Positions 36,234 to 43,927 of a stretch of 64,000 bases of DNA are shown here, in pieces. The notes beneath the pieces are model-generated. The model had not been told where the DNA came from. It did not search any database and saw nothing but the letters and a program-made list of their open reading frames with translations. This stretch comes from Verrucomicrobiaceae bacterium. Its GTDB lineage: Bacteria; Verrucomicrobiota; Verrucomicrobiia; Verrucomicrobiales; Akkermansiaceae. Each line of letters starts with the position of its first letter. The first letter of the stretch is position 1. The stretch is taken from positions 1 through 64,000 of the forward strand of contig JAIXOR010000078.1 of NCBI GenBank assembly GCA_027486655.1, read 5' to 3'. The position numbers were made by a program, and so were the translations under genes.

Positions 36234-39428
<3,195 letters not shown>

Positions 39429-39501
39429 GGTGGCCTGACCGTCAAAATTTGCTTGCGGAAAGTGTTCATAAATACACCATTTCCGCATTCGGCCTTAACT
39501 C

Positions 39502-42500
39502 ATGAAGTTTTATTCCAGTCTCTCGCAGGCCACTGGCGAGCCAAGCATGCTTGGCTATGTCAAGGTTCTGCAACGAGCATGGGACGAAGAAGAAGGTTTC
39601 GGGCTAAGCGGAGTACTCTGCGTTGAAGGCGTCCCCACCCTCTACAAAAAGGTCTCCAAAAAGGTGCTTCAGGGTGGAGAGATCCTCGATCTTCACCGCC
39701 GCTTTTGGAACCAGAGCGTGGCGAGTATCCTGCTGATCAGTGACCCCAAGACGGTTTATTTGATTTCAGGACTTCAGCCTCCGCAAAAGGACCCTCAGTT
39801 TTTGGATCCTAGTTTGGATTCATCGCCAATTGTCGAACAATGGTTGAAGCACGACTTCAGCCGCCAAAATGAAGAGGAGTTATTTGAAACCATTCTGAAT
39901 GGCGATTTCTATCGCCGTTACGATGGAAAATTCAGGAGTGCCGGGGCTGTGGATTTGCATCTCACCCGGAATCTACTCGAATTACGAAATCAACTCTCCC
40001 CAGTTCTAGGGGACCGTGCGCCAGAATTCATCTGTCGGCTGCTCTTTGTCTGCTACTTGGTTGACCGGGGAATTGTCCCGCTCCAAGGGACAAAAAATAA
40101 GCGCCTACACGAAGCATTGGAAGAACGGACCGACGAGGACGCTGTGGAGTGGCTCTACGCATTCTTCGCTTCTCAGAAAAAGGTCTTCAATGGCAGCATG
40201 TTTGATCAGGATCTCGATGCCGAGAAAGCGCTTTTAGGTCCCAGCCAGATGCATTGTGTGAAAATGCTCTTGCGGGGAGATGACATCGGCAAAGGAGAAA
40301 GAACACTCGGTTTTTGGGCATATGACTTCAGGCTTATCCCGGTTGAGACGATCAGCGCGATCTATGAAAATTTTCTCGAGGTTGAGAACCGCAAAAAGAC
40401 TGGTTCTCATTACACACCGAGATTCCTCGCGGAAATGGCAATGGATGTGGCAACTGACGGCCTCAAAACCTGGCATAAACTCAGTTACCTGGATCCGAGC
40501 TGTGGCTCGGGAATTTTCCTCGTCATTTTGTTCAATCGTTTGGTTACGCACTGGGAAATGACGAATGAGACCGAGGCGAACCGTGCTGGCAACTACAAGC
40601 GCAAGGAACAGGCTTTGCGCAAGATTCTGGATGAGCAGATCCGCGGTATGGACATCAAACCAACAGCTTGTGTCCTGGCCTGCTTCAGCCTGTACATTGC
40701 GTTTCTAGATGCATTCAACCCGTCTGATATCAAAACCTACATCCAAAAGACGGGCCACAATCGGTTGCCTAAACTATTCGTCAAAGCCAATGGCAGGGAT
40801 ACTGGAGAAAATCTGATCCCCGTGGTGATGGAAGGCGACTCGCTGAACTCCACCCGGTTGCGAAAGCGGAAATACGATGTGGTGATTGGAAACCCCCCAT
40901 GGGGAGGTGATGGTAGGGGAAGCACTGATCCAGCGTTAAAGTTTCTCCACCTCACCGACGATCTGCTCGATGAGAATGGCCGAGCCTGCCTGTTGCTCCC
41001 GTCCAAGCTGCATTTCAACATTTTCAGCAATCCGGATCAGGAGAAGTGGCTGGGTAGTCATACTCTTGAGCGCGTCCTTCAACTGGCCGACTTCCGGAGA
41101 ATCCTTTTTCCAGAGGCAAAATGCGCGACGATGGTCCTGCGTTTCAGGCTGGGGCAGTCTGCTGACGCCCGGCATGAGATCATTTACGACGCGCCGAAAT
41201 TCGACCCCGCCGCGCGCCGCCAAGGTTTTGTTTCACTGACTTCTGCTGACAGGAAGGTCGTCCCACAGGCCCGACTGCATGATGCGGCGAAAAAGAAGAA
41301 GGCGAATGTAGTATGGAAAAAGCTTCTCTGGGGCACACCACGCGACGAGCGCTTGTTGGGCTTCCTAGAGACCTTTCAGAAGATCGAGGATCGGGCTGGA
41401 AAACATGCATCGCAAAAACCATGGCGGGAGGGACAAGGGATTCAACCGGACCCGAATGAAAAATCAGAGAAGCCACACAAGCCTTGGTGGAAGCGTAACC
41501 ATCTTTTTGTCCCGGCCACATCGCCATGTTTGAACAAGTGTCAGTTTCTGCTTGAGAGTGATACTGAAATTGTGGGCGACAGGTTTTCCCGGCTCAATCG
41601 ATCTCGGGAAAAAGAGCGTCAAATTTTTCAAGCGCCCATGGTTCTTGTGAGTCAAGGGTTCGGCAAAGTCGTCTTTTGCGATTTCCCGGTTCTTTTTCAA
41701 GATTCCCTCCAATCCATTCATGGCCCGCTTGAGGATGAAGATTTGTTGCTTTTCCTGAGCGCTTATTTGCGGTCGGATCTGGCGAAGTATTTCCTATTTC
41801 ACACGTCGTCGAAGCTGGGTATCGAACGTGACGTGGTGAGGTGGGACGAGGTTTTGAAGTTGCCTTTTCCGTTGCCAGACGAAGCTCCGTCCGAAAAGGC
41901 TGCGTCAATAGTTAGGAAGGTTGCGGATTTACTTAGGGCGAGCCGTGATCGAGTTCTCGCCAAACAGGATCGACTCGACAACGACGGGTGGCTCGGATTT
42001 CGAGCCAAGGAAGCGGCACACCTTCAGTCCAAAACAAACAAACTGGTGAACGAGTATTTCGGTTTGTTGGAAAATGAGGAATGGCTGGTGGAAGATACAG
42101 TTCATATCTATTGGAAAAGCGCCACGCCGAGTTCTGCCGACGAGGTCGACATTCCTACGATTGTCCCAGTTGACCAGTGCGATGGAATTCCCGGGTATGA
42201 AAATGGGCTTCAAACCTATGCGGATTCACTTGCCTCCACATTGAACTCTTGGGCGATTGACCAGAATTCCCGCTGGCGTGTGTACGCAGAGGGCGGTATC
42301 GACGAGTCCAGCGGCCTGGCAATGGTGGCTCTTAAGATCGGAAGTCAAGAACGTGATTTCCGGCCCAAGCAGTTGATTCACGAGGTTTGGAAAGACATTT
42401 TCGGCAAGGCGAGAAAACGTCAGCAAACGCTTTCCGAACAGCGCCAGGTTTTGGTTTTCGACGATGGAGTTTTCAGGATCTTGAGACCCTCCTCTCTAGC

Positions 42501-42582
42501 CCATTGGACACGTTCATCAGCATTGAATGACGCGGATCAAATTTATTCCCAGATCAAGCTTATGGGGGAACGCCGAAAATGA
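39502..42582 (+). CDS. Eco57I-like N6-adenine DNA methyltransferase, 1026 aa
   Basis: A large class I SAM-dependent methyltransferase. The N-terminal region (about 1-170) has ILDLHRRFWNQSVASILLIS, found in long defence-type methylases. A helical region with RLLFVCYLVDRGIVPLQG (about 178-195) precedes the catalytic core: SHYTPRFLAEMAMD, motif I LDPSCGSGIF (about 330) and motif IV IGNPPWGGDG (about 463), the NPPW type of N6-adenine enzymes. Residues about 560-1026 should contain the target-recognition region. I could not find a convincing nuclease motif in the N-terminus, so it may be methylase only, with the nuclease supplied by the next gene. Its TGA overlaps that gene's ATG. Confidence 0.88.
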   Translation: MKFYSSLSQATGEPSMLGYVKVLQRAWDEEEGFGLSGVLCVEGVPTLYKKVSKKVLQGGEILDLHRRFWNQSVASILLISDPKTVYLISGLQPPQKDPQFLDPSLDSSPIVEQWLKHDFSRQNEEELFETILNGDFYRRYDGKFRSAGAVDLHLTRNLLELRNQLSPVLGDRAPEFICRLLFVCYLVDRGIVPLQGTKNKRLHEALEERTDEDAVEWLYAFFASQKKVFNGSMFDQDLDAEKALLGPSQMHCVKMLLRGDDIGKGERTLGFWAYDFRLIPVETISAIYENFLEVENRKKTGSHYTPRFLAEMAMDVATDGLKTWHKLSYLDPSCGSGIFLVILFNRLVTHWEMTNETEANRAGNYKRKEQALRKILDEQIRGMDIKPTACVLACFSLYIAFLDAFNPSDIKTYIQKTGHNRLPKLFVKANGRDTGENLIPVVMEGDSLNSTRLRKRKYDVVIGNPPWGGDGRGSTDPALKFLHLTDDLLDENGRACLLLPSKLHFNIFSNPDQEKWLGSHTLERVLQLADFRRILFPEAKCATMVLRFRLGQSADARHEIIYDAPKFDPAARRQGFVSLTSADRKVVPQARLHDAAKKKKANVVWKKLLWGTPRDERLLGFLETFQKIEDRAGKHASQKPWREGQGIQPDPNEKSEKPHKPWWKRNHLFVPATSPCLNKCQFLLESDTEIVGDRFSRLNRSREKERQIFQAPMVLVSQGFGKVVFCDFPVLFQDSLQSIHGPLEDEDLLLFLSAYLRSDLAKYFLFHTSSKLGIERDVVRWDEVLKLPFPLPDEAPSEKAASIVRKVADLLRASRDRVLAKQDRLDNDGWLGFRAKEAAHLQSKTNKLVNEYFGLLENEEWLVEDTVHIYWKSATPSSADEVDIPTIVPVDQCDGIPGYENGLQTYADSLASTLNSWAIDQNSRWRVYAEGGIDESSGLAMVALKIGSQERDFRPKQLIHEVWKDIFGKARKRQQTLSEQRQVLVFDDGVFRILRPSSLAHWTRSSALNDADQIYSQIKLMGERRK

Positions 42583-43205
42583 AAGATTCGAATGATCCCC
42601 GCTGGTTCGCTCTTTTCCCCGAGGACAAGATCCCGGGGATGATCAAGGACGTTTTGGACGCATGCATTCATTTGACTCGACCCGCACAAGGCGAGAAGCG
42701 CCCTGAGGAAGCAATCAGCAGACAGGTTTTCCAAGAGCTTTGCAGAATGCCTGCATATCGCCGAGGTCCGCTGGAACCTCATTTTGAATCATGGCTGCCA
42801 GATTTGGACGGAAGAGCCGATATCCGCTTCAGTTGTGGCAAAGGAATCGAGACTTACTTTGTTTTCGAAGCAAAGCGGCTGTTCGTTACCTACCCACGCG
42901 GAAGAAAGGATTCGTTGGTCAAGGAATATGTCCATGAGGGCATGATGCGCTTCGTAACCGGCAAATACGCTCCCTTTCAACATTCAAGTGCAATGCTGGG
43001 CTATGTTCACGACGCAGAGATTGCTGCGGCGCGTTCAGCCGTGACTGATGAAATTGCGAACAACGCAGGCCGCCTTTTTCTCGTTCGAGGTCTCGCTGCC
43101 ACCACGGTTGGGGTTGGCCCCCAAGTTGACGATTCGATTCACCTTCTAGAAAGCAATCGAAGTTTTTTGATCTACCATTTGCTTGTCCCCATACCCCCAG
43201 AATAA
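42579..43205 (+). CDS. Putative PD-(D/E)xK restriction nuclease
   Basis: A 208-residue protein with no recognised named family, but with a credible PD-(D/E)xK active site: Asp81 in DGRADIRF and Glu97-x-Lys99 in YFVFEAKRL, separated by a short beta-hairpin-sized stretch. An upstream helix with a Glu (PHFESWLPDLDGR) fits the fold. The C-terminal half (SAMLGYVHDAEIAAARSAVT and ESNRSFLIYHLLVP) is unassigned. The gene overlaps the methyltransferase gene by ATGA, the strongest reason to see it as the cognate restriction subunit. An alternative is an accessory nuclease of a defence system rather than a classical type II enzyme. Confidence 0.72.
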   Translation: MKDSNDPRWFALFPEDKIPGMIKDVLDACIHLTRPAQGEKRPEEAISRQVFQELCRMPAYRRGPLEPHFESWLPDLDGRADIRFSCGKGIETYFVFEAKRLFVTYPRGRKDSLVKEYVHEGMMRFVTGKYAPFQHSSAMLGYVHDAEIAAARSAVTDEIANNAGRLFLVRGLAATTVGVGPQVDDSIHLLESNRSFLIYHLLVPIPPE

Positions 43206-43244
43206 TTGCAGCATGATTGGGAGAATGAAATACCGAGAGCGGCA

Positions 43245-43610
43245 ATGAGAACGACACCGGAATTTTCAGAACTGCTGCGATCACACTCAAGTCGTGGCTG
43301 GGATGGAGCCGAAGTTCCTCCCGTTTCTGTGACGGCGTTGAATCAGGCACGAGAGATGATACTGGCTCTTCCCGCTTCCATTCCCAATCCGGATCTGGCT
43401 GTGGATCCTGATGACGGCGCGGTTTCGCTTGAGTGGTATGGAGGCCCATCCCGGGCTTTTTCCGTTAGTGTCAGTGGTTCGCCCCGCATGGCCTGTGCGG
43501 GAATTGATGGCACGGTGTGGCTCGTTTCGACGGAACCAAGGTGCCTGATTTTGTGCTGCAAAGCATACAACGAGTGCTGGCATGAGCGTGCTTCCATCGG
43601 GCCTTTCTGA
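43245..43610 (+). CDS. Small protein of the island, unknown function, 121 aa
   Basis: ATG 43245 is chosen, giving MRTTPEFSELL; a TTG at 43206 would add 13 residues. It contains SRGWDGAEVPPVSVTALNQA, then DLAVDPDDGAVSLEWYGGPS and RAFSVSVSGSPRMACAGIDG. I recall similar Trp-Asp-Gly / Val-Asp-Pro-Asp-Gly small proteins as widespread orphans on mobile DNA, usually followed by a second small gene, but I cannot confirm that here. It begins 39 bases after the nuclease gene and overlaps the next, truncated gene by 29 bases. The function is unknown. Confidence 0.65.
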   Translation: MRTTPEFSELLRSHSSRGWDGAEVPPVSVTALNQAREMILALPASIPNPDLAVDPDDGAVSLEWYGGPSRAFSVSVSGSPRMACAGIDGTVWLVSTEPRCLILCCKAYNECWHERASIGPF

Positions 43611-43692: not shown

Positions 43693-43847
43693 CCCGCGAG
43701 GACGAAGTCCAGATCCGCTCCACCGCCATCGCCCAGAAGATCTCCTACGCCACCAACCTCCCCGCCGCCGAGGCCAGCGTGAAAGCCATCCGCTCGCTCA
43801 AGGAAATGGAACTCACGGTGAAGAGCATCCAGGAGTATCATGGTTGA
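43693..43847 (+). repeat. Direct repeat, right copy: orphan carB 3' end
   Basis: A second copy of the last 155 bases of carB, encoding [20 protein letters not shown] and the rest of the C-terminus with its own TGA at 43845-43847, but no gene body upstream. It differs from the left copy at 43697, 43700, 43772 and 43844 only. It is non-functional as a gene. It is either the original chromosomal carB end left behind when the island arrived, or a donor-derived copy. Confidence 0.97.
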
Positions 43848-43927
43848 AATGGGTCAGTTGGAGACTTCCTCCTGATTTCTCCAAAATGACAAATTGGGTT
43901 TGGGTTCTCAGCTCCAACTCCCCATCT

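What the first reader, a model, noticed from the sequence alone, without database searches (positions are those of the whole stretch)
39502..43205. Candidate new restriction-modification pairing: 1026-aa adenine methylase coupled to a 208-aa PD-(D/E)xK protein
The methylase has NPPW and DPSCGSG motifs and the length of type IIG fused enzymes, but I see no nuclease motif in its N-terminus. The next gene, overlapping by ATGA, has Asp81...Glu97-x-Lys99. This suggests the nuclease is split off as a small coupled subunit, an arrangement I cannot assign to a named type.
Basis: partly seen in the sequence, partly recalled or inferred. Interest (0 to 1): 0.72.

Follow-up and report, generated by a model that had tools for sequence, protein, structure and literature searches.

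The report
Split restriction pair beside carB
Two coupled bacterial genes, a DNA-marking enzyme and a small separate DNA-cutting enzyme, look like a virus-defence pair that recurs in several bacterial phyla and whose marking enzyme is filed in one defence database as a single fused enzyme.

Summary
The 1026-aa protein is a gamma-type N6-adenine DNA methylase with intact DPSCGSG and NPPW. Its N-terminus shows no nuclease site: no Lys column reaches 75% in residues 1-225 of 24 aligned methylases. The 208-aa protein matches no Pfam, NCBIfam or PADLOC family, but its model (pLDDT 88.6) has PD-(D/E)XK topology. E43, D81, E97 and K99 are invariant in 26 of 26 aligned sequences, and in a 20-sequence set reaching down to 16% identity.

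The pairing is conserved. Of 28 nuclease loci in a genome scan, 27 have the methylase directly upstream; the other starts at a contig end. In 247 genomes of a second phylum, 9 of 11 loci could be tested and all 9 have it. In 16 of 24 scan loci a LexA-like regulator precedes the methylase; the window copy has none.

Best reading: a translocase-free, split Type IIG-like restriction-modification system. Split Type IIG-like systems were reported in 2016 (PMC4752239) with PLD, GIY-YIG or HNH nucleases plus translocases, so this is a new variant of a known kind. That the nuclease borrows the methylase's specificity is inferred; my sequence test was inconclusive. No activity is shown. The window copy lies between 160-bp copies of the carB 3' end.

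The parts
39502..42582 (+). gamma-type N6-adenine DNA methylase with C-terminal recognition region (M+S subunit), 1026 aa
   Evidence: Pfam N6_Mtase 2.4e-9, Eco57I 7.8e-9, MmeI_Mtase 2.5e-7; PADLOC REase_MTase_IIG PDLC03623 1e-54; model pLDDT 84.5, VIA Z 26.0 to CamA over 277-855
42579..43205 (+). small PD-(D/E)XK nuclease (R subunit), 208 aa; E43, D81, E97, K99
   Evidence: 26-sequence alignment, 20-sequence divergent alignment, model pLDDT 88.6, VIA list headed by OkrAI, BglII, BamHI, BstYI
42579..42582 (+). ATGA stop/start overlap of the two genes
   Evidence: sequence; 4-nt overlap in 13 of 27 related pairs
43206..43610 (+). third ORF of the insert, TTG start, 134 aa, function unknown; probably not part of the system
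   Evidence: no family match; a 52% identical piece (66 aa) after the pair in L012
39274..39433 (+). left direct repeat = 3' end of the intact carB (carB ORF 36234-39428)
   Evidence: aligned
43693..43852 (+). right direct repeat = second copy of the carB 3' end, no full gene
   Evidence: aligned

Best explanation
A two-subunit, translocase-free, split Type IIG-like restriction-modification system. The methylase (M+S) reads a short DNA site through its C-terminal recognition region and methylates an adenine there, marking host DNA. The small PD-(D/E)XK protein, made by translational coupling, docks on the methylase, most likely on the N-terminal domain or helical connector where fused Type IIG enzymes carry their nuclease, and cuts DNA near unmethylated sites, probably when two complexes meet. 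Shown here: gene order and coupling, conserved catalytic residues of both proteins, conserved linkage, predicted folds. Inferred: the complex, shared specificity, cleavage, defence.
For: Methylase family and fold (CamA Z 26.0, rmsd 4.5 over 484; BrxX Z 22.4, 4.4 over 598; MmeI Z 22.0, 5.1 over 552; DrdV Z 21.1, 5.5 over 544). No conserved Lys in its residues 1-225. Nuclease: invariant E43, D81, E97, K99, topology helix 42-56, strands 65-73, 76-86 (D81), 93-101 (E97, K99), helix 114-126, strand 136-144; the first 12 VIA rows are all nucleases (OkrAI Z 8.5, rmsd 4.0 over 140; BglII, BamHI, BstYI, McrC, MunI, NucC, BsoBI). Linkage: methylase directly upstream in 27 of 28 loci, in 9 of 9 testable of 11 loci in a second phylum, and on both plasmid records found. 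From the methylase side, 12 of 14 testable methylase ORFs among 276 genomes have a nuclease-profile match next door. One of the two exceptions (L085) has a fused-type N-terminal D...ExK by eye and no neighbour match, an either/or pattern with n=1.
Against: No complex, cleavage or methylation was measured. No fusion of the two was seen. The nuclease's identity follows that of the recognition region beyond the methylase core (partial r 0.33 for residues 640-760, permutation p 0.001), which a self-reading nuclease would also give; the methylase's own N-terminal and C-terminal domains show 0.50 and 0.38, so the test does not discriminate. In the pair L018/L030 the recognition region falls to 53% and the nuclease is 66% while the catalytic part is 82-86%. 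Best solved-structure neighbours of the nuclease are Type IIP enzymes of similar size that read DNA themselves, at Z near the tool's background for best matches (7-8), and Foldseek alone gave nothing under E 0.049.
Confidence: 0.6

Rival explanations
1. Ordinary Type II pair: the small protein is an independent BamHI/BglII-like restriction enzyme that recognises the same site by itself, and the methylase only protects.
For: VIA rows 1-5 and 7 are OkrAI, BglII, BamHI and BstYI, all around 200 aa; gamma methylases such as M.AhdI and M.TaqI accompany separate Type II enzymes (PMC4081073 passages); nuclease and recognition region co-vary.
Against: The coupled order and the invariant core persist down to 16% nuclease identity with one methylase superfamily in every testable nuclease locus, which fits a docking partner better than an exchangeable enzyme (inference).
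Confidence: 0.25
2. The nuclease is not a restriction subunit but a conditional or abortive effector that senses the methylation state, as in BREX-like schemes, with the methylase as marker.
For: The methylase resembles PglX/BrxX; a LexA/S24-like regulator precedes it in 16 of 24 loci, hinting at damage-linked expression.
Against: No PglZ-, BrxC- or other partner gene was seen between the repeats; gene pairs stand alone in most flanks by eye (not searched by profile).
Confidence: 0.1
3. Decayed Type IIG relic or chance neighbours.
For: Some relatives are broken: L039 and L110 have the methylase in two ORFs, and one search counted one stop in the G456 nuclease.
Against: Both window ORFs are intact and all four nuclease residues are invariant in 26 of 26; linkage has no testable exception.
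Confidence: 0.05

Closest known systems
Split Type IIG-like systems AchA6III, OspHL35III, MexAMORF1192P (PMC4752239; section 10 read whole, S4 Fig legend in passages, figure not seen)
   Same: Methylase with recognition domain and no endonuclease motif; endonuclease encoded on a separate peptide nearby
   Different: Those use PLD, GIY-YIG or HNH nucleases with translocases; here a small PD-(D/E)XK and no translocase in the insert
Fused Type IIG / IIL enzymes: MmeI, BpuSI, DrdV (PMC3874165 passages)
   Same: Gamma methylase, helical connector and recognition region; fold match over 151-863 (MmeI) or wider (DrdV, BpuSI)
   Different: Here the nuclease is a separate gene and the methylase N-terminus lacks a conserved ExK
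HVO_A0006 / HVO_A0237 of Haloferax volcanii (PMC4389544, abstract and passages)
   Same: Proposed split of PD-(D/E)XK nuclease and methylase
   Different: There the two are unlinked gene fragments on one plasmid; here they are a coupled operon conserved across phyla
Heterodimeric Type IIS enzymes BspD6I, BtsI (PMC6261011 and PMC2909958, start of abstract in search listings only)
   Same: Small separate subunit supplies a catalytic site; VIA Z 5.1, rmsd 4.0 over 121 to the BspD6I small subunit
   Different: Their large subunit is a nuclease, not the methylase
BREX PglX/BrxX
   Same: Methylase fold, VIA Z 22.4 over 148-868
   Different: No other BREX gene between the repeats

Membership tests
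Type IIG (fused) | gamma-class m6A methylase with N..PPW and motif I | tested here: met
Type IIG (fused) | endonuclease domain at the N-terminus of the same polypeptide | tested here: not met
   no Lys column at 75% or more in residues 1-225 of 24 sequences
Type IIG (fused) | cleavage at a fixed distance from the site | not testable with these tools
   needs biochemistry
Split Type IIG-like (PMC4752239) | MTase-TRD peptide without endonuclease motif | tested here: met
Split Type IIG-like (PMC4752239) | endonuclease on a separate, linked peptide | tested here: met
Split Type IIG-like (PMC4752239) | one recognition module serves both activities | tested here: inconclusive
   co-variation test does not discriminate
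Split Type IIG-like (PMC4752239) | translocase partner, as in the examples AchA6III, OspHL35III and MexAMORF1192P | tested here: not met
   three ORFs only between the repeats, none a translocase
[quoted passage not shown]
   model secondary structure and invariant residues
PD-(D/E)XK nuclease superfamily | match to a known sequence family of the superfamily | tested here: not met
   no match in Pfam, NCBIfam or PADLOC at E 1 or better; nothing relevant in PDB sequences
BREX | PglX-type methylase | tested here: inconclusive
   NCBIfam BREX_2_MTaseX 51.4 bits against a cut-off of 400
BREX | PglZ and other core genes beside it | tested here: not met
   not among the ORFs between the repeats
Type IIP with separate enzyme | nuclease recognises its own palindromic site | not testable with these tools
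   needs biochemistry

The most novel reading that the evidence does not exclude
A large, unlisted class of two-subunit restriction systems: a single methylase/recognition protein lends its specificity to a tiny detachable PD-(D/E)XK nuclease, in many lineages under a self-cleaving LexA-like repressor that would release the operon on DNA damage. PADLOC's REase_MTase_IIG models PDLC03603 and PDLC03623 would then describe methylase subunits whose nuclease has been overlooked.
Probability: 0.35. Interest if true: 0.7.

Novelty: new variant of a known kind. Interest (0 to 1): 0.52.

Why it matters
If right, a set of methylases that PADLOC labels as fused Type IIG enzymes are half-systems whose nuclease was missed, so predictions of which genomes can restrict DNA, and of what to clone for new enzymes, need the neighbour gene. 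A detachable nuclease that takes its target from an exchangeable partner would also be a handy test bed for how Type IIG enzymes arose by fusion (or split), and a LexA-type controller would link restriction to DNA damage, which I did not find described in the searches.

Tried and rejected
Profile look-ups of the nuclease and of the third ORF gave nothing at E 1 or better; PDB sequences gave only a designed protein at E 0.51 for the nuclease. Foldseek with the nuclease model had no match at or under E 0.001, the best being Bax1/XPB at 0.049; I rely on VIA plus the motif, and note that Z 8.5 is only just above the tool's stated background for best matches. Phage records and viral contigs gave no relative; plasmids gave 2 records of 72,556.

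I tested whether the nuclease varies with the recognition region (22 loci; L028 dropped as nearly identical to L019, and L024 absent because its nuclease ORF is short). The answer is positive but no larger than for other methylase domains, so I claim nothing from it. The bounds of the recognition region (about 621-800) are my choice.

Rejected: chance adjacency, nuclease hidden in the methylase N-terminus, BREX membership. Rows left out: A5 omits L024, L037 and L039 (short, cut or broken nucleases) of 28 loci; A6 omits L014, L020, L022, L037 (cut) and L039 (split) of 28; A7 has the 16 regulators plus L081, L083, L084 and L009, not those found later; A8 is a hand-picked 20. One search's printed output was cut in the middle.

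Literature: searches. Searches (split type IIG; LexA family with type IIG) returned no paper; one search returned one phage paper. That no paper describes this exact pair is therefore only 'not found in these searches' of an open-licence library.
Full report
What is there. Two genes overlap by ATGA at 42579-42582: a 1026-aa methylase (39502-42582) and a 208-aa protein (42579-43205). The methylase matches Pfam N6_Mtase (2.4e-9), Eco57I (7.8e-9) and MmeI_Mtase (2.5e-7), all above their cut-offs, and PADLOC's REase_MTase_IIG model PDLC03623 at 1e-54 over residues 35-918. The 208-aa protein and the third ORF of the insert match no family in Pfam, PADLOC or NCBIfam at E 1 or better.

The nuclease. 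In 26 aligned sequences (window plus 25 loci) E43, D81, E97 and K99 are invariant. In a 20-sequence set that reaches down to 16% identity, the invariant columns are E43, D81, E97, K99, Y117, G121, F125 and H200, so four of eight are the expected catalytic positions. The AlphaFold2 model (pLDDT 88.6, pTM 0.87) puts E43 at the start of helix 42-56, D81 on strand 76-86 and E97/K99 on strand 93-101, followed by helix 114-126 and strand 136-144. The first 12 rows of the VIA second look are all nucleases, headed by OkrAI (Z 8.5, rmsd 4.0 over 140), BglII, BamHI and BstYI; the BspD6I small subunit scores 5.1 (rmsd 4.0 over 121) and Type IIG BpuSI 4.7 (rmsd 4.1 over 120, on chain residues 7-147). These Z values are modest and Foldseek alone found nothing under E 0.049, so the assignment rests on motif, topology and the uniform list together.

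The methylase. Its model (pLDDT 84.5) matches CamA (Z 26.0, rmsd 4.5, 484 residues, 277-855), BrxX (22.4; 148-868), MmeI (22.0; 151-863) and DrdV (21.1; 16-851). The first 140 residues form a small alpha/beta domain; DrdV and BpuSI alignments start inside it (16 and 39), which would fit a vestige of the fused nuclease, but this was not tested by a search of that domain alone. No Lys column reaches 75% in residues 1-225 of 24 aligned methylases, so no ExK site is conserved there.

Conserved pairing. A genome-contig scan gave 28 loci: Verrucomicrobia, Lentisphaerae, Kiritimatiellae, many Desulfobacterales and other 'Deltaproteobacteria', a spirochaete, an Anaerolineae and a Sulfurimicrobium, by record title; 27 of the 28 titles are marked MAG. 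In 27 of 28 the methylase lies directly upstream; L037 starts at a contig end. By first start codon, 13 of 27 overlap by 4 nt, 3 by 1 nt, 5 have gaps of 1-6 nt and 6 have longer apparent overlaps. In 247 genomes of the phylum of G334, 8 carry 11 nuclease matches; 2 of the 11 lie at contig ends and all other 9 have the methylase upstream (for L017, for the rest). Two of these nine repeat loci of the scan (L017, and L111, which by contig and ORF lengths is L027). Genome G334 has four copies. Both plasmid records found (Sagittula, Bradyrhizobium) carry an annotated N-6 DNA methylase just upstream.

From the other side, the methylase matched in 13 of 276 genomes of the window's phylum, 16 matches in 15 ORFs. 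Of these 15, one (L083) runs off a contig end. Of the 14 testable, 12 have a nuclease-profile match next door. The two without are L078, whose 227-aa neighbour shows an unproven DIGF...VEAK by eye, and L085, whose methylase has a fused-type N-terminal ADYLF...ICEAK by eye and which fits PADLOC's PDLC03604. Relatives L007 and L076 fit PDLC03623 (30-1009 of 1022) and PDLC03603 (17-1013 of 1016) over their full length, so these two IIG models seem to describe methylases that have a separate nuclease.

Regulator. In 16 of 24 scan loci whose methylase start is held, the next gene upstream is a LexA-like protein (Pfam LexA_DNA_bind plus Peptidase_S24 in the 4 of these 16 tested, and in L081 and L084). 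In 20 aligned regulators the A-G cleavage pair (101-102), Ser139 and Lys176 are invariant; which residues these correspond to in E. coli LexA is recalled. The window copy, L012 and seven other scan loci lack it.

The insert. The pair and a third ORF lie between two 160-bp copies of the carB 3' end, 96% identical, in a 4259-bp stretch of 51.5% GC against 64.6% and 64.3%. Within the genus the carB end is 74-86% identical (five genomes), so the two copies are closer to each other than to any of these. In G240 the carB end runs on into sequence like that after the right-hand copy (73% over 304 bases; 68% over 129 bases beyond the repeat, E 4e-6); the other five loci compared showed no such match. 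[quoted passage not shown] L012 carries the nearest relatives (66% and 62% identity) also just after carB, but without a second repeat, so import from a relative by homologous recombination is an open alternative.

How it probably works, and what is not shown. I hold that the methylase gives the site and the mark, and the small nuclease docks and cuts unmarked DNA. A test for shared specificity was inconclusive: nuclease identity follows the recognition region (partial r 0.33 for 640-760), but the methylase's own N- and C-terminal domains do so as strongly (0.50, 0.38). The resemblance to BamHI-like enzymes keeps the independent-enzyme rival at 0.25.

Compared with what is known. PMC4752239 (section 10 read whole, S4 legend in passages) describes Type IIG-like systems with methylase and endonuclease on separate peptides, using PLD, GIY-YIG or HNH nucleases and translocases. 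PMC4389544 (passages) suggests a split IIG from two Haloferax gene fragments. PMC3874165 (passages) defines Type IIG by an N-terminal cleavage domain. The present pair fails that definition and fits the split kind with a new nuclease type and no translocase: a new variant of a known kind.

Noticed in passing
window 39274-39433 and 43693-43852: 160-bp direct repeats of the carB 3' end flank the low-GC insert; suggests insertion with long target duplication.
   Followed up: partly
L015-L019, L023-L025, L027-L032, L038, L039 (upstream of the methylase): LexA-like regulators with LexA_DNA_bind and S24 domains (Pfam run on L015, L016, L023, L038) and invariant AG, Ser and Lys; a self-cleaving repressor in front of a restriction operon.
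   Followed up: partly
L076 832-9206 (-): The methylase-nuclease pair is embedded between a Type III mod-like gene and a Type III res gene, all four overlapping.
   Followed up: partly
L012 28-3606 (+): carB ORF of 1192 aa with an extra in-frame stretch of roughly 200 aa that resembles, from memory, REP-associated tyrosine transposases; Pfam at 1e-5 listed no transposase there.
   Followed up: partly
window 43206-43610 (+): Third ORF of the insert, no family; by eye it may be frame-shifted near its 3' end (not tested). A related piece follows the pair in L012.
   Followed up: no
L079 8059-13050 (+): The methylase-nuclease pair is followed on the same strand by further large unassigned ORFs; the 685-aa one matches no Pfam family at 1e-5.
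   Followed up: no
L102, L103, L104 and L017 (all G334): Four diverged copies of the pair in one genome.
   Followed up: no
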